Source: Acidimicrobiaceae bacterium
Lineage (GTDB): Bacteria > Actinomycetota > Acidimicrobiia > Acidimicrobiales > UBA10347
Assembly (NCBI GenBank): GCA_003485885.1
Contig: DNHM01000100.1
Span: forward strand, 1 to 13,367
DNA length: 13,367 nt
Direction of reading: 5' to 3'
Shown: positions 2,152 through 12,723 of the stretch, piece after piece
Layout: every line of letters begins with the position of its first letter
Position numbering within the stretch: the stretch's first letter is position 1
Program-made: the position numbers and the translations under genes
The notes under the pieces: model-generated
What the model saw: only the letters and a program-made list of their open reading frames with translations
Databases searched by the model: none
What the model was told of the DNA's origin: nothing

Positions 2152-2733
2152 TCATGCCAACGGGGCAATGCCGGGTACCCGTGAGGGTCGGGCAAACACT
2201 TCGTCGAGCATCGGACGGAAGTTGTCGAGCGTCATAGAGTCGTAGTTCGGGTCGAAGCAGTTCTGGTCATACTCTGCACAAAACTGGACGCACGCATCGA
2301 AGTATGGCGAGTCTGCGTAGCGATCTCGGGCGTGTCGGTCGCCGCCGAGGTGATGGAAGTAGTAATAACCCTGGAAGATCCCGTGGTGTTTGATGACCCA
2401 GTGGGTTTCGTCGTCGACGTAAGGAGCGAGTAACGCCGCTGCGGCATCGCTGTGGTTCTCGGGTGCGAACGCGTCGGCCACGTCGTGCAACAACGCGCCA
2501 ATGACCAGATCGATTCGTTCGCCGTTGCGGTGAGCCCGTGTTGCCGACTGAAGCGAGTGGTCATATCGGTCTATCTGGTAGCCGAGAAGCGGCCCTCGCA
2601 ACATCGCAAGCATAGAGACGAGGTTGTCGACGAGTGCACTTCGCGCATGTTCTTCGAACAGTGGTGTCAGTACCTCGTAGTCAGCTTGGCTGCCGTCGGC
2701 CATGGATATCCAGGTCACGGTATGGGTGCTCAT
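2152..2733 (-). CDS. HD-domain protein, PhnZ/TmpB-like putative oxygenase
   Basis: A 193-residue soluble HD-fold protein. Likely metal ligands are H59 (YDHSLQ), H83-D84 (LLHDV), H94 (PENH), H116/H117 (IKHHG) and D156 (AEYDQN), the order seen in HD proteins with a two-metal site. The segment HSLQSATRA, the aromatic run GYYYFHHLG and the tail DQNCFDPNYD recall a family often annotated as phosphohydrolase, related to the di-iron oxygenases PhnZ and TmpB that cleave C-P bonds of hydroxylated phosphonates. PhnZ has HDxGH; here it reads HDVADA, so the substrate pocket may differ. The start at 2733 is fixed by GGAGAGG four bases upstream. Its ATG overlaps the TGA of a TmpA-like remnant (ATGA), which speaks for a former two-gene phosphonate module. 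A hydrolase role cannot be excluded; the HD fold is near certain, the oxygenase role inferred. Confidence 0.85.
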   Translation of the reverse strand: MSTHTVTWISMADGSQADYEVLTPLFEEHARSALVDNLVSMLAMLRGPLLGYQIDRYDHSLQSATRAHRNGERIDLVIGALLHDVADAFAPENHSDAAAALLAPYVDDETHWVIKHHGIFQGYYYFHHLGGDRHARDRYADSPYFDACVQFCAEYDQNCFDPNYDSMTLDNFRPMLDEVFARPSRVPGIAPLA

Positions 2734-2987
2734 CGCGCCTCTCCAGAGATACCTGCCGCTAGCGCGGCAACATCGTCACAGTCGAAGTAGGTGTCTTGCA
2801 GATCGCGCTCACCGCTACTGCCGTCAAATGTGCGACGTGCATGCAAGACGCTTAGGCCACGCAGGAACTGCATAGTCCCGGCATAGATACGAAATTCGAT
2901 CTGATTGGCCGGGTTGCTGATCGCTGTTGTGAGCAGGTGATAAGCGAGGTGGAAGGCATCGACGTCGGCGTCGCCACGTGGCCATTG
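2730..2987 (-). pseudogene. C-terminal remnant of a TmpA/BBOX-like dioxygenase
   Basis: Reading the minus strand from 2987 gives about 85 codons ending in a TGA (2732-2730) that overlaps the HD start as ATGA. The translation contains WPRGDADVDAFHLAY, then NPANQIEFRIYAG, then LSVLHARRTFDGSSGERDLQ and YFDCDD. This is the typical end of gamma-butyrobetaine-hydroxylase-like 2-oxoglutarate oxygenases, where families usually show LHGR.AFD....G.RHLQ..Y.D.D. H in LHAR would be the distal iron ligand. The frame is closed by TGA at 2990-2988, and no upstream half with the HxD motif is found between this point and the next gene at 3132, so most of the protein (about three quarters) is missing. TmpA, which hydroxylates trimethylaminoethylphosphonate ahead of the HD enzyme TmpB, belongs to this family; identity with TmpA rather than another BBOX-like enzyme is inferred from the coupling to the HD gene. 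Confidence 0.75.
2738..2744 (-). promoter_or_regulatory. Ribosome binding site of the HD-domain gene
   Basis: Read on the minus strand, GGAGAGG stands four bases before the ATG at 2733. It decides between this start and a later in-frame ATG at 2703. The site lies inside the 3' coding end of the TmpA-like remnant, as expected for translationally coupled genes. Confidence 0.6.
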
Positions 2988-3131
2988 TCACTGTGGAGCT
3001 GAGACCAATTGCACAATCGCCTCCCGAAGGTCAGTAGGGGAAAACGTACTCTCTTTGGTTGCTCCGTGGTGTGACAATAATTCACGAAGCTCGCGAGTGC
3101 ACCCGACGTTCTGTTCGTTATCCCAGAGCCG
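2988..3131 (-). other. Unassigned stretch between two dioxygenase genes
   Basis: In the same minus-strand frame as the TmpA-like remnant, the segment from 3131 to 2991 is open and reads like a coding tail (for example TRELRELLSHHGATKES and PTDLREAIVQLVSAPQ) before the TGA at 2990. It does not resemble the expected middle of a BBOX-like enzyme. It could be the end of an unrelated gene left by a deletion, or chance. It has no good start with a ribosome binding site. Confidence 0.3.
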
Positions 3132-4028
3132 TTACTTACGGTCTTGTTGCACGTCAAAAATGGTGGTGTAGCCACCACGGGACCAATCAGGTGCGGCTGG
3201 CATTGTTCGACCGTGCACGGTGAGCGAACGAGCGGGCTCGCCCTGCCCAATGAGCATGCCTGAGGTGCGGCCGGTGGCACCGTTCGCACCCACGCCGAGT
3301 AGCGGAAAGCTGTCGAAGGCCGAATACGTCTGCAGTAACAACGGGCGCACGCGACCAGAGTTGTTGGGCATCGAACCATGGACGCAGCCGCAGTTGTGCA
3401 CGGTTATCGAGCCTGCGGGACCCTTTAGATAGTTGGCGGAAGCAAGATCGATTCTGGGCAGATCGTCGGCTCGGATCGAGCCGGTCCACGTCTCGTTGTC
3501 GTTGGCATACAAGTTGAATAGTTCACCGGTGTGGCTACCGGGCACTATGCCCATGGGGCCCATCTCGTCGTCAACGTCATTGAGGTACACCCCAATGGTG
3601 AGCGGCGTGAAGTCGGAATGGGGCCAATACTGGATGTCCTGGTGCCAGTCGACAACTTCGCCACCATCTGACCACTTGTAGTTCAGTTTTGAATGGTGGT
3701 AGCGGGCTGGCGAGCCAAGCAAGTCCAACGCGATGTCGGCCGCTGGTCCAGCGAGCGTGAACTCGGCAAAGGCCGGGTGATGATCAACCGGATTGGTCAG
3801 CCGCCGAAGGCGCGGGGTTTCTGCACTGTGGTCCGGCTCGAGGTCGAGCTTCTTGTTGCTGGTGCTCAGCGACCGACTTTCTTCGATGAACTCATCGCTC
3901 GCGCTCTGGAGCCGGGCCAGCCACTCTTCGCTAACCGCACCTTCAATAAGAAGGTAACCCTGTTCGTGGTAGCGCGTGATCTGTTGTTGAGACAGCACGC
4001 GAAGCTCGTTCGACACCGTTGCACCCAT
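3132..4028 (-). CDS. PhyH-family Fe(II)/2-oxoglutarate dioxygenase
   Basis: A 298-residue soluble oxygenase of the phytanoyl-CoA dioxygenase family, the family that also holds PhnY (2-aminoethylphosphonate hydroxylase) and ectoine hydroxylase. The iron triad is visible: H129 and D131 in VDWHQDIQYW, and H217 in CGCVHGSMPNNSGRVRP; R228, eleven residues after the distal histidine, fits the 2-oxoglutarate anchor. The N-terminal LSQQQITRYHEQGYLLIEG is the usual opening helix. The central GPMGIVPGSHTGELF is the family's core strand region. Length is normal and nothing is broken. It starts at ATG 4028 behind a modest AGGGTGG; a divergent gene starts about 30 bases away. The gene lies upstream of the HD gene on the same strand, so together they could replace or mimic a PhnY-PhnZ pair. 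The substrate is unknown; that pairing is inference. Confidence 0.88.
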   Translation of the reverse strand: MGATVSNELRVLSQQQITRYHEQGYLLIEGAVSEEWLARLQSASDEFIEESRSLSTSNKKLDLEPDHSAETPRLRRLTNPVDHHPAFAEFTLAGPAADIALDLLGSPARYHHSKLNYKWSDGGEVVDWHQDIQYWPHSDFTPLTIGVYLNDVDDEMGPMGIVPGSHTGELFNLYANDNETWTGSIRADDLPRIDLASANYLKGPAGSITVHNCGCVHGSMPNNSGRVRPLLLQTYSAFDSFPLLGVGANGATGRTSGMLIGQGEPARSLTVHGRTMPAAPDWSRGGYTTIFDVQQDRK

Positions 4029-4058: not shown

Positions 4059-4946
4059 GTGCGAAAGGAGCGCAGGCCGTCGCCAGACAAGGACCATGAA
4101 TGTGTCTACTATCTCGACACGTTGCACGCCGAACGGTTATCGCCAGCGCTTGGTGCAGATCTGGTGGGTATGCGTGCGGAGAGTTTGCGCGACCCGGCGC
4201 TGATCGAGTCGCTGTACGAGATGCTCATCGAGCATCAGGTGGTGTTCATCCGCGATGCAGACCTTCACCCGGTTGATCTGGTGCGGCTAGGTGAGTCGCT
4301 GGGAACACTTGGCGCTCGCCACCACAGCTACCCCACGCACCCTGACGCCGACGATGTCGTCGTGCTCAGTTGGCAAGGCGATGACACGCCCGACGCCGCT
4401 GAATGGCATAGCGACATGACCTATCGCGAACGTCCACCGTTCGCATCGATCTTGCGGGCGGTTGAACTGCCGCCCGTTGGTGGCGACACGCTGTGGGCGA
4501 GTATGCACTCGGTGTACGAGTCGCTAAGCGATGGGTTGTAGAGCGAGTTGGCCGAGCTCGAGGTCGTGCATGACATGGGAGCTTTTCGCAACGGAGCGTA
4601 TGCAGCTGGAGGCAACGCGGGCGTTGTCGAGGCGATGGGTCAGGCCGGCATAGCAGTACACCCGGTCGTCATGCATCATCCAGTAAGTGGACGTCCGTAT
4701 CTGAACGTCAGCGAATCGTTTACCCGATGGATCATTGGCATGTCGGCGCCCGAGGGTGCTCGACTTCTGACCATGCTCTTCGACATCACCAATCGACCAG
4801 AGCACCATGTCCGGTTGCGGTGGATGCCGAACACCATTGCCATCTGGGATAACCGAGGCACCCAGCACTATGCCGTCGTCGACTATCTGCCCCATCGCCG
4901 CGTCATGCATCGCGTAGCGGTGGCGACGGATCGCCGCTGCGTTTGA
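4059..4946 (+). pseudogene. TauD/TfdA-family dioxygenase with in-frame TAG
   Basis: One reading frame encodes a full-length TauD-type Fe(II)/2-oxoglutarate oxygenase of about 295 codons except for a TAG at 4539-4541 (codon 161). Before the stop stand LSPALGADLVGM, the iron ligands H and D in AEWHSDMTYRERPP, and PPVGGDTLWASM; after it come SGRPYLNVSE, IWDNRGTQHYAVVDY with the distal histidine, and HRRVMHRVAVA. Residues on either side of the stop (YESLSDGL and SELAELEVVHD) join as in intact relatives, so a single CAG-to-TAG change explains it. TAG ends several other genes here, which argues against read-through by recoding. The start is unsure: GTG 4059 has no clear ribosome binding site, and ATG 4096 lies in another frame, so a second lesion near the N terminus is possible. 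TauD relatives oxidise taurine and other sulfonates or amines; the original substrate is unknown. Confidence 0.8.
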
Positions 4947-5331
4947 TTGCTGCTGCGTCGCTGGTTGTGCGGTTGAAAGCGCGTGATCGTGCTCGAAGAG
5001 TTGCTCGAACAGCATGGCCCTCACCTCGTCGAAAGGGGAGCGAGGCCGGACAAGCTTCTAAGCCATAGGTCATCGTCGACAAACCTTGCAAGAAGTGCTG
5101 TCGTCTCGTCGATTCGATCGTGCGCGTGTTGGCGCCAAAGTCGCCATTACCGCCGCGTCGAGAATTGCTCGTCGGGTGTTAGTTGCCTTGATTGCCCATG
5201 CATTCGAAGGATCGAACATTTGCCGTAACGTGCTGACGAAAGCGTTCTCGTCCCGAACAGAGATTCTGCTGCCAACGATATGCGTATACTTGGTGGTCGT
5301 GGTTACACATACGGGCGAGCGACTTGCATCG
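4947..5331 (+). other. Stretch without a convincing gene
   Basis: The 385 bases between the TauD-like pseudogene and the next likely start hold open frames on both strands, but none is recognisable. The plus-strand frame of the next gene is open back to a TTG at 5086, yet that part does not look like the rest of the protein. A minus-strand frame (5390 to 5070) gives a composition that looks somewhat protein-like (for example SRISVRDENAFVSTLRQMF) but no family I know. A TATACT at 5285-5290 is a possible -10 box for the downstream genes, about 40 bases before the ATG at 5332; no good -35 is visible. Confidence 0.4.
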
Positions 5332-7011
5332 ATGGTTAGCGAGTATCGAGATCGTCTGCGCGACTCCGAAGTTGTCATGGCACCGCTCACGCTTGGCGCC
5401 GCTCGTTTGACTCGGTACAGCTTCAGTCGGATGTTGCTACGACGTGCAGTCGTCGATGGCTGGCAAGCGCAGCGCGTGCTCTTTGAGATCGATGCCGAGG
5501 GCTGTGGTGAAGCTGCCTACGAGATCCGTATCGCCGACCGAGTATTTCACTTCGTGGCGTTCACCACGACGCTTGATGAATCGGAACACACTGATCGAGT
5601 TGTGGCCAACAACTGGGAGATCACCGGAGCGCTTGTCGAAGGTGACCTGACCAATGAGCTCATGGCGATGCTGCGGGCCGAGGTGCCCAAACAGGAAGAC
5701 GGTCGCGTCGATGCCCGAGTCTTGGTGCTGACGCGGGGTAATCGCAGCCTGCGCTTCTTCCAGTACATCGTTGACTGTCTTGCCGGCGGAGGGCAACCAG
5801 ATGCCGAGTTGGTCGGCGACGCCGGCTACATGATGCGAAGTACTGCGTTCTATGGGAATGGTAAATACGGCATGCGCTCGTTCGCTGGATATGCCCCATC
5901 GCACCCGCTCCGCGTTCCTTATCGGGCACAAATGTTGGCTGCGTGGTTGTATCGAGAGCTCAGCTATGACGTCATCGAACACTGTGCGGCAAGGCAAGGT
6001 GGAACTCGAGCAGTTGCATTTGATGACCAGTGGAAACGGTTCTTTGGGTTGGGAAATGCAACCGGGCTAGGACTCGTGCCTTATGCCATGAAACATCCGC
6101 ACGTAATTCACGCGTGGGCCGCAGTACGTGAGATTGCTCTAGCCCAGGTTCGAGAAATGACCGTGACCGAGGCTCGGTGCCGGGCGCTTTGTGACTGGAT
6201 CGACCGGGCTCGAGACGCGTTCTCAACCGGCACGACCGACGAGTGCGCTCCGTTCCTCAATCCGCGAGAGCTTGTCGGTTTCATCGACCAGATTCACGCG
6301 AAGTTTGATGAGCTTCGATCACATCCTCGGGCGTGGGACGAGCTCTATCGATGGGCGAGTGATCAGTCTGCTGAACTCACCGAACTTGTCGTTGCTTTGT
6401 TGATTGAAATCCACGAAGGGGACGACGAGGTCATCGATGAGATGTTCTACGTCGACGAGGGCTGCTCCGTCGACCCAGGGCTAACGGTCGGCAGCCTTGT
6501 TGACCTGCTGGCGCAGCGGTTTTCCTGGCTTGATCAACTCGACCTGGCAGCGACCGATGCCGACCACTATTTGTGGCTGATCAGCGACAACACCGAGGAA
6601 CCTCGGCGAGCGCCTCGGGCCAGATTCCGTTCCGATGGGCGCGATGTTGCGATCGATGTTGCGCTCCGTGTCGCGGAACTGAGTCGGGCGCTTGAACTGG
6701 CTGACAAAGATCTGTCAGTCACAACACTGCTGCGGGACCAGCCAGAACTGCGAATGGCCGTTGAGCGTGTCGTCACGAGTGGCGACGTCTACGGCGAGCC
6801 GCGAGATAATGTTTGCAGCGCCAACTTCTTGCCATTGCAGCTGCAACGCTTCCAGTTAGCGATGTACGGCATGGACAACTTCAAGCCGAAGTCGACCGAT
6901 TGGCTTCGTGTCACGTTGTTTCAGGGAGCACCGCGTCTTGCGGATCTTGGCAACGATGCAGCAATGATTGACCAATGGGCGATGCCCGCTCGGCCTGGGA
7001 GCCAACCATGA
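5332..7011 (+). CDS. Conserved protein of unknown function, about 559 aa
   Basis: I do not assign a function. Taking ATG 5332, the product has 559 residues, no signal peptide and no obvious membrane helix, so it is probably cytosolic. Segments that look strongly conserved include RYSFSRMLLRRAVVDGWQ near the start, VFHFVAFTTTLDESEHTDRV, EVPKQEDGRVDARVLVLTR, the glycine-rich AFYGNGKYGMRSFAGY, a helical stretch PYRAQMLAAWLYRELSYD and GLGNATGLGLVPYAMKHP. I recall proteins of this kind beside M19 dipeptidase-like and dehydrogenase genes, but cannot verify that here. The frame stays open upstream to TTG 5086, but those 82 extra residues are unlike the rest and lack a ribosome binding site, so the later start is preferred. 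Its TGA (7009-7011) overlaps the ATG of the M19-like gene, showing tight coupling. No catalytic motif is recognised. Confidence 0.8.
   Translation: MVSEYRDRLRDSEVVMAPLTLGAARLTRYSFSRMLLRRAVVDGWQAQRVLFEIDAEGCGEAAYEIRIADRVFHFVAFTTTLDESEHTDRVVANNWEITGALVEGDLTNELMAMLRAEVPKQEDGRVDARVLVLTRGNRSLRFFQYIVDCLAGGGQPDAELVGDAGYMMRSTAFYGNGKYGMRSFAGYAPSHPLRVPYRAQMLAAWLYRELSYDVIEHCAARQGGTRAVAFDDQWKRFFGLGNATGLGLVPYAMKHPHVIHAWAAVREIALAQVREMTVTEARCRALCDWIDRARDAFSTGTTDECAPFLNPRELVGFIDQIHAKFDELRSHPRAWDELYRWASDQSAELTELVVALLIEIHEGDDEVIDEMFYVDEGCSVDPGLTVGSLVDLLAQRFSWLDQLDLAATDADHYLWLISDNTEEPRRAPRARFRSDGRDVAIDVALRVAELSRALELADKDLSVTTLLRDQPELRMAVERVVTSGDVYGEPRDNVCSANFLPLQLQRFQLAMYGMDNFKPKSTDWLRVTLFQGAPRLADLGNDAAMIDQWAMPARPGSQP
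6997..7001 (+). promoter_or_regulatory. Ribosome binding site of the M19-like gene
   Basis: GGGAG lies six bases before the ATG at 7008. It decides for this start over an earlier in-frame ATG at 6975, and it sits inside the coding end of the upstream gene, consistent with translational coupling through the ATGA overlap. Confidence 0.6.
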
Positions 7012-8584: not shown

Positions 8585-10276
8585 GTGGCAGGTTCGTTGA
8601 AGAAAATGCGTCACGTAGTTACCGACAAGACCTATGACTACATCATCATCGGCGGTGGGTCCGCTGGGTGTGCGTTGGCAAACCGACTGAGCGCCGACCC
8701 TGCCAACGAAGTGCTGGTGATCGAAGCGGGGCGCAAGGACTGGAAGTGGGATGTCTTCATCCACATGCCAGCGGCGCTGACCTACCCGATCGGCAGCCGG
8801 TTCTACGACTGGAAGTACGAGAGCGAACCCGAGCCGTTCATGAACGGCCGCAAGGTGTATCACGCTCGTGGCAAGGTCCTTGGCGGCAGCAGCAGCATCA
8901 ACGGCATGATCTTCCAGCGGGGTAATCCCATGGATTATGACAAGTGGGCCGCCGAGCCGGGTATGGAGCACTGGGCGTACGAGAACTGCTTGCCGTACTT
9001 CAAACGAATGGAAAATCGCCTGGTTGGCGGCGACGAATGGCGAGGCGAGGACGGCCCGCTCAAGCTCGAGACCGGACCGGCCGGGAATCCACTGTTCAAC
9101 GCGTGGCTCGAAGCTGGCCCTCAAGCCGGTTTCCACAGCACGAGCGACGTGAACGGCTACCAGCAGGAAGGTTTCGCGGTCTTCGACAAGAACGTGGTCC
9201 GAGGCCGTCGCCTGAGCGCCGCCCGTGCGTACCTGCACCCGGTGCTTGACCGAGCAAACCTCACCCTGCTCACGTTGGCCCAAGCCAACAAGATTGTGTT
9301 CGAAGGCAATCGAGCCGTGGGGGTCGAGTACCGCCGAGGTCGCCGCACCCACACAGTTCGCGGCACCGAGATCATCAGCTGTGGTGGCGCGTTCAACTCG
9401 CCGCAGTTATTGCAGCTGTCAGGAATCGGCGACCCGGACCACCTGAAGTCACTCGGTATCGACGTTGTTTCGGCGCTCCCGGGTGTCGGCGAAAACTTGC
9501 AGGATCATCTCGAGGTCTATATCCAGTACGCGTGCAAGGAACCGGTTTCCATGCAGCCGTACAACGCCACATGGCGTATGCCTTTTATTGGCTTGCAATG
9601 GCTCTTCCGGCGGGGACCAGCGGCGACCAACCACTTCGAAGCTGGCGCGTTCCTACGCAGCAACGACCAGGTTGAGTACCCCAACCTGATGTTCCACTTC
9701 CTGCCGATTGCGATCCGGTACGACGGGTCAGAGGCCACCGAGGGCCACGGCTACCAGGTGCACGTTGGCCCGATGTATAGCGATGTCCGTGGCACGGTCA
9801 AGATCAAAACCACGAATCCGCGTGAACACCCCGCAGTGCAGTTCAACTATCTGTCGACGGGCAATGATCGCAAAGAGTGGATCGAAGCAGTGCGCACTGC
9901 TCGCCGGGTGCTGACGCAACCGGCGTTCGAGAAGTACAACGGCGGCGAAGTGTCACCAGGGCCATCGGTCGAGACCGACGAAGAGATTCTCAAATGGGTG
10001 GCGTCTGATTCCGAGACGGCCTTGCACCCATCGTGCACCGCCCGTATGGGAACCGATGACATGGCCGTTGTTGACCCAGCGACATTGCGAGTGCACGGCG
10101 TCGAAGGTCTGCGAGTCTGCGACGCATCCGTCATGCCAAATGTCACCAACGGCAACATCTATGCACCAGTCATGATGATCGCCGAGCGATGTGCCGACAT
10201 GATCCTTGGCCAGGTCCAACTTCCGGCCGAAGAAGTCGACGTCTACCGGGCACCCGACGCCGGCCGCTTCGCGTAG
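8585..10276 (+). CDS. betA: Choline dehydrogenase (GMC oxidoreductase)
   Basis: A 563-residue FAD enzyme that by family oxidises choline to betaine aldehyde (and often on to glycine betaine), passing electrons to the respiratory chain at the inner membrane. The FAD-binding motif [19 protein letters not shown] lies near residues 17-35. [20 protein letters not shown] near 98-117 is GMC signature 1 and [16 protein letters not shown] near 263-278 is signature 2. The C-terminal active site [18 protein letters not shown] (H481) and [13 protein letters not shown] are close to BetA. Length equals the usual 550-560. The start is GTG 8585 with GGGGAG five bases upstream. It is the last gene of the rightward set starting at 5332 and ends 230 bases before the end of the opposing vapC. 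The choline-sulfatase gene follows on the same strand beyond vapBC, giving choline-O-sulfate to choline to betaine. No betB or betI is seen. A related alcohol substrate cannot be excluded. Confidence 0.88.
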
Positions 10277-10506: not shown

Positions 10507-10895
10507 CTAGACGACATCGAACTGACAGCGCGTATCTGGCGCATTGGCGAGGCGTTGGTCGGCGGTGACCAGTGGGCAGCCTAAGGCTTCGGCGAGAACG
10601 ACGTAACACGAGTCATAGGCGGTCACGTTGTCGCGTAGCTCCCATTCGCGGCGCAGTAGCGGTGCCGTGGGGTAGACAACGAGTGGAACGTGCAGCAAGT
10701 CCTGCACGGCGTTGTCCGCCTGATTTGACGTAAAGGAGCCTTTAGCTAGGTGCCGGGAAGCACCGACATTGTTTCCAGCCGGAGCAAATCGGGCGCAGCA
10801 AGCGATTGACCTTTGATTCGCATCCGACACGCGTCCCCATCGGGGCCGCCGTCGGCGATGGCCGGGGCGATAACAGAAGCGTCAACGACGAGCAC
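10507..10895 (-). pseudogene. vapC: VapC-type PIN-domain toxin, frameshifted
   Basis: A PIN-domain ribonuclease of a type II toxin-antitoxin pair, read in two minus-strand frames. From GTG 10895 the first frame gives VLVVDASVIAPAIADGG and ends after LLRLETMSVLPGT at a TAG (10748-10746). The second frame, entered near 10757, continues RHLAKGSFTSNQADNAVQ and runs through RDNVTAYDSCYVVLAE and PLVTADQRLA to the stop at 10507. Joined with one missing base, the protein has the normal 129 residues and all four acidic site residues (D5, E41, D95, D113). A one-base deletion around 10755-10759 therefore breaks an otherwise complete toxin. The start overlaps the antitoxin end by 14 bases and has GAGGA five bases upstream. 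It may be a true pseudogene or a sequencing error in the GGG/CCC run. Confidence 0.8.
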
Positions 10896-11112
10896 GTTCG
10901 TCCTCAAGAGCAGAGACGGCGTCAGCCTTCGACAGCTGACCCTTCGATCGGTTCTCAATTCGCTCGAGTACGTCGTCGAGCGTCGGGGTGGCAGCGATCG
11001 AGGCCAACTGTGCTGACAGATACTGCTGCAGCGACTGGCCAGCGCGTTCGGCTCGTCGAACCAGCTCGTTGTGAACGTCGTCGGGCACTTCTCGGATCTG
11101 AACGTTGGGCAT
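10882..11112 (-). CDS. vapB: VapB-type ribbon-helix-helix antitoxin
   Basis: A 76-residue antitoxin of the FitA/VapB type. The N terminus (NVQIREVPDDVHNELVRRAE then RAGQSLQQYLSAQL) is a ribbon-helix-helix DNA-binding domain. The charged C terminus (TLDDVLERIENRSKGQLSK and EDERARR) would wrap the toxin. The start at ATG 11112 is preferred to ATG 11127 because it gives the usual family N terminus and leaves the palindromic operator and -10 box outside the gene. The stop (10884-10882) lies within the first codons of vapC, as usual in these pairs. The protein normally represses its own promoter, bound to toxin. The antitoxin is intact although the toxin carries a frameshift. It transcribes away from the choline-sulfatase gene. 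Confidence 0.85.
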   Translation of the reverse strand: MPNVQIREVPDDVHNELVRRAERAGQSLQQYLSAQLASIAATPTLDDVLERIENRSKGQLSKADAVSALEDERARR

Positions 11113-11131
11113 GCATGCATTATGCATGCAT
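11111..11131 (-). promoter_or_regulatory. Perfect palindrome and -10 box at vapB (probable operator)
   Basis: Two copies of ATGCATGCAT, itself a palindrome, flank one central base, giving a perfect inverted repeat that is also a direct repeat. On the minus strand its centre contains CATAAT (11124-11119), a good -10 box that ends six bases before the vapB ATG at 11112. The spacing fits a leaderless transcript and a site where VapB, a ribbon-helix-helix protein, could repress its own gene. No clear -35 is seen. Confidence 0.6.
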
Positions 11132-11214: not shown

Positions 11215-11220
11215 GTGGCG

Positions 11221-12723
11221 ATGACGACGCAACCGAACATCGTGCTGATCATGGCGGATCAGATGGCAGCGCCGTTCATGGCACCGTGGGGTGGGCCAGC
11301 GATTGCCCCGGCGATCGACCGGCTGGCAGCCGACGGTGTGGTCTTCGAGTCGACGTACAGCAATTCGCCACTGTGCGCGCCCGCTCGGTTCGCGATGATG
11401 GCTGGCCAGCAGAATCACAAAATCGGTGCCTATGACAATGCGTCGGAGTTCGCCTCGACGGTGCCGACGTTTGCGCACTATCTGCGCTCGGCTGGTTATC
11501 AAACGTCACTCGTTGGCAAGATGCATTTCGTTGGTCCCGACCAGCTGCACGGCTACGAAGAACGGCTGACGACCGATATCTATCCGGCTGACTTTGGGTG
11601 GACCCCGAACTGGCTCGACCCTGACGGCCGCTTCGACTGGTGGTTCCACAACCTGGACAGCGTGACCCACGCCGGAGTTGCCGACGCCACCAACCAGCTC
11701 GACTATGACGACGAGGTCGGCTTCCGTACGATCCGCAAGTTGCGCGACCTGGCACGAACCCAGGATGAACGCCCGTTCATGGTTACCGCGTCGTTCACAC
11801 ATCCGCACGACCCCTATGTCGCTCGCCAAGAGTTCTGGGATCTGTACGACGATGTCGATATCCCGATGCCAACTGTCGGCCCGATCGCTGATGATGAGCT
11901 CGACCCGCATAGCGTCCGGTTACGCAAGGTCATCTGCGCCGACACAACCCACGTCACCGACGAACAGATCCTGGCCGCGCGCCGCGCCTATCTCGCCAAC
12001 TGCTCCTACGTCGATCACTGGGTCGGGCAGATCGTGGACACGCTCAACTACCACGGACTGGCCGACGACACGATCATCGTGTTTACCGCAGATCACGGCG
12101 ACATGCTGGGTGAGAGGGGCCTCTGGTACAAGATGAACTTCTTCGAACACAGCGCTCGAATCCCACTCATCGTGCACTCGCCGACCCGTTTCCGTGCATC
12201 TCGGGTGGCCACCCTGTCGAGCCTGCTCGACATTGCGCCGACGTTGCTCGACATGGCTGGTATCGAGGCGCCGAGCGCAATGGACGGTCACAGTCTGCTC
12301 CCGCAGCTTGGCGGCTTCGAAGACACGTTGCGGACAGTGGAGGGGGAGTATCTAGGCGAGGGCGCGGTGGCCCCGATCTTCATGCTCCGCAGAGGCAAAC
12401 TCAAATACATCTACAGCCAGCCCGACGGTGACCAGCTGTATGACCTGAGCGTTGATCCGCATGAGCTGAACAATGTCGTTGACTCGGTCGAGTACCTGGC
12501 CGATGTCGCGAGTTTCCGATCCGAAGCAAAAGACCGGTGGAACATGTCGCAGATACTGGTCGACGTGCTCGATAGCCAAGCTGATCGACGGGTTGTCGAC
12601 CATGCGCTCCGCAAGGGTCGGTACTCGGCCTGGGACTTCCAACCAACGACCGACGCAACCGGTCAGTACATGCGCAACCATCTGGATCTCAATGATGTCG
12701 AGTCCGGTCGTCGTTCCAGCTAG
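11221..12723 (+). CDS. betC: Choline-sulfatase
   Basis: A 500-residue sulfatase that hydrolyses choline-O-sulfate to choline and sulfate, probably in the cytoplasm as no signal peptide is present. The formylglycine motif CAPAR (C52 from ATG 11221, C54 from the alternative GTG 11215) lies in YSNSPLCAPARFAMM. The opening NIVLIMADQ holds the first calcium-ligand aspartate; FTADHGDMLGERGLWYKM holds the later metal ligands. LVGKMHFVGPDQLHGYEERL, TTDIYPADFGWTP, SFTHPHDPY and the tail WDFQPTTDATGQYMRNHLDL are specific to BetC rather than to sulfatases in general. Length is normal for the family. It lies downstream of the choline dehydrogenase gene, separated by vapBC, and has its own likely promoter. 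The LysR gene is convergent, 46 bases beyond its stop. It needs a formylglycine-generating or anaerobic maturase enzyme encoded elsewhere. Confidence 0.92.
   Translation: MTTQPNIVLIMADQMAAPFMAPWGGPAIAPAIDRLAADGVVFESTYSNSPLCAPARFAMMAGQQNHKIGAYDNASEFASTVPTFAHYLRSAGYQTSLVGKMHFVGPDQLHGYEERLTTDIYPADFGWTPNWLDPDGRFDWWFHNLDSVTHAGVADATNQLDYDDEVGFRTIRKLRDLARTQDERPFMVTASFTHPHDPYVARQEFWDLYDDVDIPMPTVGPIADDELDPHSVRLRKVICADTTHVTDEQILAARRAYLANCSYVDHWVGQIVDTLNYHGLADDTIIVFTADHGDMLGERGLWYKMNFFEHSARIPLIVHSPTRFRASRVATLSSLLDIAPTLLDMAGIEAPSAMDGHSLLPQLGGFEDTLRTVEGEYLGEGAVAPIFMLRRGKLKYIYSQPDGDQLYDLSVDPHELNNVVDSVEYLADVASFRSEAKDRWNMSQILVDVLDSQADRRVVDHALRKGRYSAWDFQPTTDATGQYMRNHLDLNDVESGRRSS

What the first reader, a model, noticed from the sequence alone, without database searches (positions are those of the whole stretch)
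2152..2987. Decayed TmpA-like partner still coupled to an intact HD oxygenase-like gene
The HD gene's ATG overlaps the TGA of an unannotated reading frame whose last 85 codons read as the C terminus of a gamma-butyrobetaine-hydroxylase-like oxygenase (LHARRTFDGSSGERDLQ). A BBOX-like oxygenase coupled to an HD oxygenase is the arrangement of TmpA and TmpB, which turn trimethylaminoethylphosphonate into glycine betaine and phosphate. Only the second enzyme survives here. It may now serve another hydroxylating partner, such as the intact PhyH-family enzyme at 3132-4028, which would create a hybrid PhnY/TmpB-type pathway.
Basis: partly seen in the sequence, partly recalled or inferred. Interest (0 to 1): 0.72.

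Follow-up and report, generated by a model that had tools for sequence, protein, structure and literature searches.

The report
Truncated oxygenase beside intact HD oxygenase
In this bacterium an enzyme gene that is normally the front half of a two-enzyme oxidation pair has been cut down to its tail while its partner stays intact; relatives with both genes, and natural fusions of the two, suggest that the pair is an uncharacterised cousin of known phosphonate-degrading pairs with a different, still unknown substrate.

Summary
The HD gene (2152-2733, minus) starts inside the stop codon (ATGA, 2730-2733) of an 85-codon frame that is the C-terminal tail of a TmpA/gamma-butyrobetaine-dioxygenase-type Fe/2OG enzyme (NCBIfam TmpA E=7.5e-13). 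Of 6 congeneric genomes, 3 have the gene intact and overlapping HD, 2 (this one and its sister) have tails, 1 cannot tell. Two natural fusions (P0214, P0252) join the enzymes. The HD protein keeps all six di-iron ligands and models best onto PhnZ/TmpB.

The pathway named is not supported. The HD protein lies in a clade apart from PhnZ/TmpB with pocket positions changed (K108 to Q in 33 of 33 rows). The intact partners form a clade outside TmpA and BBOX (TmpA R288 to Q in 23 of 23; amine cage F/H/H in 19 of 23). Choline genes here, and carnitine or one-carbon genes elsewhere, hint at methylated-amine catabolism. PhyH is no later substitute: it already stands beside the intact pair in a congener. 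Outside the genus most HD relatives examined have no such partner nearby. New variant of a known kind, partner lost here; substrate unknown.

The parts
2152..2733 (-). Intact HD-domain protein, 193 aa; predicted mixed-valent di-iron oxygenase of a clade apart from PhnZ/TmpB; ligands H59, H83, D84, H94, H117, D156
2730..2987 (-). C-terminal remnant (85 codons plus TGA) of a TmpA-like Fe/2OG oxygenase gene; no HxD motif
2730..2733 (-). ATGA overlap of remnant stop and HD start
   Evidence: same overlap in L035, L045 and L183
2738..2744 (-). Shine-Dalgarno-like GGAGAGG of the HD gene, inside the remnant; GGAGA or GGACA at the same place in L032, L035, L042, L045
   Evidence: read by eye
2988..3131 (-). 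Spacer between PhyH and the remnant; no DNA match to the PhyH-TmpA junction or the TmpA 5' part of L035, and not repeated elsewhere in the genome
3132..4028 (-). Intact PhyH-family Fe/2OG oxygenase, 298 aa; also upstream of HD in L032 and L035
4059..4946 (+). Taurine-dioxygenase-like gene interrupted by an in-frame TAG (4539-4541), divergent from PhyH; a 281-aa ORF covers both halves in L045

Best explanation
The locus is the damaged copy of an uncharacterised two-enzyme oxygenase pair that works like PhnY/PhnZ and TmpA/TmpB but is neither. In intact relatives a BBOX/TmpA-superfamily Fe(II)/2-oxoglutarate enzyme is predicted to hydroxylate a carbon of the substrate, and the translationally coupled (elsewhere fused) HD enzyme, with a mixed-valent di-iron site, is predicted to cleave oxidatively the adjacent C-X bond. 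The changed pockets of both proteins and the choline, carnitine and one-carbon genes around several copies make a methylated-amine-type substrate more likely than an organophosphonate. In the window species the 5' part (about 298 of 383 codons) of the first gene is gone and the last 85 codons remain, carrying the probable ribosome-binding site of the HD gene; the loss looks recent and separate from the older one in the sister species. The HD and PhyH genes stay under purifying selection, so the HD enzyme still has a job: alone (the commonest state in the loci examined), with PhyH, or on product made elsewhere. Shown: gene structures, homology, coupling, fusion, predicted fold, ligand conservation, clade placement. 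Inferred: chemistry, substrate class, present role.
Against: No activity is known to me for any member. In genome contigs 34 of 42 HD loci show no TmpA-like or PhyH hit to my profiles in the held flanks (30 of 42 have at least 4 kb on both sides). Of 14 genomes of the order with a TmpA-like gene, 4 have no HD at the threshold used, and in the 7 with HD outside the genus the two genes lie on different contigs, so the pairing is not obligate. Contexts differ between families (branched-chain aminotransferase, thiamine-type ABC transporter, helicase), which may mean several substrates. Glycine betaine is also the product of TmpA/TmpB, so a choline/betaine neighbourhood does not exclude a phosphonate. 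Synonymous sites are saturated, so dating of the losses is rough, and the sister relation of the two species with tails (98/91) would by parsimony favour one shared loss.
Confidence: 0.6

Rival explanations
1. A genuine TmpA/TmpB pathway for trimethylaminoethylphosphonate whose TmpA has decayed.
For: TmpA is the best NCBIfam match of the tail (E=7.5e-13); gene order and coupling as in TmpA-TmpB; N187 and N287 of TmpA keep their Asn; betaine-related neighbours.
Against: Intact partners L035, L045, L042 score 216, 220 and 235 bits against a TmpA cut-off of 400 and nearly the same against BBOX; HD scores 21.5 against 300 for TmpB. R288 to Q, aromatic cage to His, K108 to Q, E27 to Y/F/C; separate clades. 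In P0281, a TmpA over its cut-off is fused to an HD domain of the other clade.
Confidence: 0.13
2. The HD enzyme now works with the neighbouring PhyH oxygenase (PhnY/PhnZ-like logic), with or without a phosphonate.
For: PhyH directly upstream in the window and L032, and upstream of the pair in L035; both genes under purifying selection. In the order 15 of 26 genomes with PhyH also have HD, against 55 of 298 with HD overall (Fisher p=2.7e-6, not corrected for phylogeny). L071 has HD followed by another PhyH.
Against: PhyH is beside the intact pair in L035, so it is no replacement; G001 and G003 have HD and no PhyH ortholog at the threshold used; in L043 and L057 PhyH is on the other strand 2 kb away; PhyH scores 32 bits against a cut-off of 500 for methylphosphonate hydroxylase; PhnY-PhnZ-type pairs in the order have a different HD clade.
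Confidence: 0.2
3. The HD protein is an ordinary HD phosphohydrolase unrelated to oxygenases.
For: Sources name several relatives 'predicted HD phosphohydrolase'; most loci examined have no Fe/2OG neighbour.
Confidence: 0.1
4. The truncation is an assembly error of the metagenome-assembled genome.
For: 572 contigs, 80% complete; a second oxygenase nearby also carries a stop.
Against: A 99%-identical HD protein (P0001) is listed from 6 contigs, the longest 41,417 bases, while the window's contig has 13,367; yet among the best 120 of 280 TmpA-like proteins the tail closest to the remnant is 71% identical. What lies upstream of HD on those contigs was not seen. The sister species has an even shorter tail.
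Confidence: 0.08
5. The 85 codons are kept because they still do something: a small protein, or the coupled leader and ribosome-binding site of HD.
For: No in-frame stop in 85 codons; pN/pS to L035 0.31, inside the range 0.31-0.47 of the three intact pairs; GGAGAGG inside the remnant.
Against: The tail lacks the HxD iron motif and most of the fold; recent truncation explains the same pattern; the sister species keeps far less.
Confidence: 0.12

Closest known systems
TmpA/TmpB (Leisingera caerulea; 6npb/6npa)
   Same: BBOX-type Fe/2OG enzyme coupled to an HD protein; same folds, Fe ligands and gene order; a fused form exists too (P0281, Kutzneria)
   Different: 28% identity to TmpA for L035; below both equivalog cut-offs; TmpA R288 to Q and cage Y/F/Y to F/H/H; HD lacks the E27 and K108 equivalents; separate clades
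PhnY*/PhnZ (HF130; 4mlm)
   Same: HD fold and six di-iron ligands; PhyH-family gene next to HD
   Different: HD E27, H62 and K108 positions changed; PhyH far below the cut-off of the PhnY-type methylphosphonate hydroxylase model
Gamma-butyrobetaine dioxygenase (BBOX; 3ms5)
   Same: GBBH-like N domain with the CxCxxC motif and a TauD domain; N191 and N293 kept
   Different: 24% identity for L035; W181 and Y194 positions are His; linked or fused to HD
myo-Inositol oxygenase (MIOX)
   Same: HD di-iron oxygenase that cleaves a C-C bond

Membership tests
TmpA (NF049936) | Score above the equivalog cut-off of 400 bits | tested here: not met
   Remnant 48 bits; intact orthologs L035 216, L045 220, L042 235
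TmpA (NF049936) | Phosphonate-contacting N187, N287, R288 | tested here: not met
   Two Asn kept, R288 is Q in 23 of 23 family rows; residue roles from PMC9296572 passages
TmpA (NF049936) | Catalytically complete Fe/2OG core | tested here: not met
   Window copy lacks the HxD motif; present in L035, L042, L045
TmpB (NF049941) | Score above the cut-off of 300 bits | tested here: not met
   21.5 bits
PhnZ/TmpB oxygenases | YxxE substrate loop (Y24/E27 in PhnZ; PMC8177086 passages) | tested here: not met
   E27 column is Y, F or C, never E, in 33 of 33 window-clade rows
HD-domain di-iron oxygenases | H...HD...H...H...D ligand set | tested here: met
   H59, H83, D84, H94, H117, D156 invariant in 28 of 28 and 33 of 33
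HD-domain di-iron oxygenases | Mixed-valent Fe(II)/Fe(III) cofactor and O2-dependent C-X cleavage | not testable with these tools
   Needs purified protein
HD-domain di-iron oxygenases | Fold closer to PhnZ/TmpB/MIOX than to HD hydrolases | tested here: met
Gamma-butyrobetaine dioxygenase (TIGR02409) | Score above the cut-off of 414.75 bits | tested here: not met
   Remnant 40 bits; intact orthologs L035 211, L045 193, L042 220
PhnY-type methylphosphonate hydroxylase (NF052437) | Score above the cut-off of 500 bits | tested here: not met
   Window PhyH 32.3 bits; ectoine hydroxylase model 53.8 against 336.5

The most novel reading that the evidence does not exclude
The intact TmpA-like/HD pair, and its one-polypeptide fusions, is a further kind of hydroxylase plus HD-oxygenase tandem that breaks a bond other than C-P (for instance C-C or C-S) in a methylated-amine or betaine-type compound and feeds one-carbon metabolism. 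The window species has lost the hydroxylase and runs the HD enzyme with PhyH or alone.
Probability: 0.33. Interest if true: 0.75.

Novelty: new variant of a known kind. Interest (0 to 1): 0.5.

Why it matters
A 2020 review, read here in passages, names three HD-domain oxygenases (MIOX, PhnZ, TmpB; PMC8177086); a 2023 review adds GmPhnZ and the fused PhoF (PMC10574752, passages). A large group (2,207 proteins at E<=0.001 to the window HD protein) with a complete di-iron site in every row aligned here, a changed pocket, and operon and fusion links to an Fe/2OG hydroxylase gives a directly testable route to a new activity, and warns against annotating such pairs as TmpA/TmpB or as phosphonate genes.

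Tried and rejected
Rejected: phosphohydrolase (fold and ligands); PhyH as a later substitute (it stands beside the intact pair in L035); a duplicate partner elsewhere in the genome: the only other near-full-length TmpA-like match (C538) is 26% identical and lies among BKACE- and dehydrogenase-like ORFs (read by eye), and C451 gives a partial match (the genome is 80% complete). No PhnZ/TmpB-type HD in the genome: matches of 32 and 22 bits only, against a cut-off of 214.6. One shared ancestral loss with L032 is disfavoured, not excluded: the two are sisters (98/91), but the window tail is 60% identical to L035 while the L032 tail is 37% identical to the window over 52 codons; in a neutral simulation (start: the window tail) one substitution per site leaves 18% identity and a 4% chance of no stop. 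The neighbour of HD in L034 is a relative of the carnitine-cluster gene C538, not an ortholog of the lost gene; it was one of the four rows of my TmpA-like profile, so searches use a slightly mixed profile. In the TmpA tree the places of human BBOX, P0241 and L112 are unsure (long branches). P0241, P0243 and P0247 look frame-shifted or internally shortened (by eye) and are not counted as fusions. A neighbour survey of 11 loci with TmpA-like genes gave no common set beyond FTHFS and an MTHFR-like gene in 2 (L178, L183); my gene calls there were naive. The paralog in L185 has F/V/E at the cage positions, so the wider family is not uniform.

Paper searches listed no paper whose title or abstract start concerns this clade; only open-licence papers are searched, so this shows little. 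Passages only were seen of PMC8177086, PMC9296572 and PMC10574752. The residue labels BBOX Y177/W181/Y194/Y366 and PhnZ H62/K108 and their roles are recalled, as is the role of MTTB-family enzymes in demethylating methylated amines.

Full report
What is there. On the minus strand the window holds, in order of transcription, a PhyH-family Fe/2OG oxygenase (3132-4028), a spacer (2988-3131), an 85-codon frame (2733-2987) ending in TGA (2730-2732), and an HD-domain gene (2152-2733) whose ATG overlaps that TGA as ATGA. The frame is the C-terminal tail of a TmpA/BBOX-superfamily enzyme: NCBIfam TmpA E=7.5e-13 at positions 290-357 of 366, GBB dioxygenase 3e-10, trimethyllysine dioxygenase 3.4e-7; Pfam TauD 24.1 bits, below its cut-off of 27; solved TmpA 6npb E=0.0014. 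The part N-terminal of that tail was not found: in the whole genome (80% complete) the L035 protein matches only this tail, a 26%-identical gene on C538 and a weak partial match on C451.

The gene is whole in relatives. The window is a whole contig of 13,367 bases of an unnamed metagenome-assembled genome; records of its nearest relatives are called Acidimicrobiales or Acidimicrobiaceae. Of 6 genomes of the genus, own included, three have an intact TmpA-like gene directly before HD (G005=L035, 383 aa; G001=L045, 383 aa; G003=L042, 365 aa), two have tails (the window, 81 residues matched; G002=L032, 49 residues matched), and in G004 the HD gene is cut by the contig end. The overlap is ATGA in L035 and L045 and one base in L042. 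In another family of the order (G396, L183) a TmpA-like gene again overlaps an HD gene as ATGA. In P0214 (507 aa; 8 contigs) and P0252 (628 aa; 1 contig) a TmpA-like enzyme and an HD domain of this clade are one polypeptide (343 and 254 bits for the first part, 235 and 203 for the HD part). P0281 from Kutzneria joins a TmpA over its cut-off (409.5 bits against 400) to an HD domain of the PhnZ/TmpB-type clade (211.5 against 214.6 for Phn-HD, 193.9 against 300 for TmpB).

Decay. The window tail has no stop in 85 codons. Its pN/pS to L035 is 0.31 and to L042 and L045 0.47 each; among the three intact genes over the same codons the values are 0.39, 0.47 and 0.31. So little relaxed drift is visible, although the identity of the window tail to L042 and L045 (49%, 46%) is lower than that of L035 to them (61%, 54%). 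The L032 tail is 37% identical to the window over 52 codons, whereas HD is 81% identical. HD and PhyH between window and L032 have pN/pS 0.18 each. Synonymous sites are saturated, so these are rough. I read this as a recent truncation in the window lineage and an older one in L032; the sister relation of the two (98/91) would alone suggest one shared loss. In five of five junctions looked at, GGAGA or GGACA lies about ten bases before the HD start, so the last codons of the tail probably serve as the HD ribosome-binding site.

What the lost partner was. The intact partners L035, L045 and L042 have the GBBH-like N domain and a TauD domain and score about alike to TmpA and BBOX (L035: 216 and 211 bits, both under their cut-offs). 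In a 33-row tree their family (23 rows, 100/100, both fusions included) lies outside the TmpA-type rows and human BBOX. The position of TmpA R288 is Q in 23 of 23 family rows and R in 4 of 4 TmpA-type rows; the aromatic cage positions of BBOX (Y177, W181, Y194; labels recalled) are F/H/H in 19 of 23 (not in P0159, P0164, P0177, P0178); the three iron ligands and the two Asn (N191, N293) are kept in 23 of 23. The L183 partner has the same F/H/H and Q. PMC9296572 (passages) gives N187, N287 and R288 of TmpA as the phosphonate ligands and a shared aromatic set for the trimethyl group. Both partners therefore differ from TmpA/TmpB where the substrate would bind.

Surroundings. The window also encodes a choline dehydrogenase (8585-10276; 837 bits, cut-off 732), a choline-sulfatase (11215-12723; 713, cut-off 433) and a taurine-dioxygenase-like gene interrupted by TAG. 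In L032 the same dehydrogenase (90% identity) lies next to PhyH. L071 (bin MED-G181, Pseudomonadota) has carnitine 3-dehydrogenase (725 bits, cut-off 592), BKACE, an aldolase-family gene, HD, PhyH and a methyltransferase-like gene in one direction. L183 has an MTTB-family gene (Pfam 731 bits, cut-off 25; under the NCBIfam cut-off for trimethylamine methyltransferase, 238 against 525), a hydrolase-like gene, FTHFS (820 bits), an MTHFR-like gene, TmpA-like and HD in one direction. These suggest methylated-amine and one-carbon catabolism. Against a single function, other HD relatives stand beside a branched-chain aminotransferase (L048, L049, L051, L055), a thiamine-type ABC transporter (L054, L064, L067) or a DEAD-box helicase (L039). 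In the 42 loci, 4 have a TmpA-like hit of at least 100 bits (one of them, L034, carnitine-type), 5 a PhyH hit, 8 any of these or a tail, and 34 none in the held flanks.

Co-occurrence in the order (298 genomes in each call, taken to be the same draw; not corrected for phylogeny): HD at E<=1e-60 in 55; TmpA-like at E<=1e-45 in 14, of which 10 have HD (Fisher p=1.2e-5); PhyH at E<=1e-60 in 26, of which 15 have HD (p=2.7e-6) (overlaps counted by hand from the tables). In 7 of those 10 the TmpA-like and HD genes lie on different contigs; only the three congeners have them side by side, while G396 (L183) has the pair with an HD below the threshold. G001 and G003 have HD and an intact TmpA-like gene but no PhyH at that threshold.

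Conclusion. The identification as TmpA/TmpB, and PhyH as a later substitute, do not hold. The better reading is an uncharacterised sister pair with a different substrate, whose first enzyme has been lost at least once and probably twice in this genus while the HD gene is retained.

Noticed in passing
window 4059-4946 (+): Taurine-dioxygenase-like gene with one in-frame TAG at 4539-4541; a 281-aa ORF (2935-3780, minus) covers both halves in L045, so a second Fe/2OG gene of the neighbourhood is broken or carries a base error.
   Followed up: partly
window 8585-10276 and 11215-12723 (+): Choline dehydrogenase and choline-sulfatase, both over their NCBIfam cut-offs: a choline-O-sulfate to betaine route in the same window.
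   Followed up: partly
window 10507-11127 (-): FitA-like ribbon-helix-helix antitoxin ORF followed by a short PIN-domain ORF (a toxin-antitoxin-like pair, possibly incomplete).
   Followed up: no
window 5086-7011 (+): 641-aa ORF without a Pfam match at the thresholds used, followed by an M19 dipeptidase and a weakly TfuA-like ORF.
   Followed up: no
G000:C495 (L002, L149): A second HD protein of the wider clade (about 35% identical) in the same genome, with no hit to my TmpA-like or PhyH profiles beside it; its subclade (L002, L013, L015, L021) branches outside the group with the fusions.
   Followed up: partly
P0242, P0244: HD domain of this clade fused to a 3-hydroxyisobutyrate-dehydrogenase-like domain, another possible hint to the pathway.
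   Followed up: no
L185 6386-8469 (G005): A paralogous TmpA-like gene overlapping or abutting a PhyH gene and following an MFS transporter, with no HD hit; its cage positions are F/V/E.
   Followed up: partly
L098-L110 (except L101), L112, L113: PhyH-HD pairs resembling PhnY-PhnZ, and TmpA-like/HD pairs resembling TmpA-TmpB, in the same phylum (most in the same order), all with the other HD clade and under the Phn-HD cut-off.
   Followed up: partly
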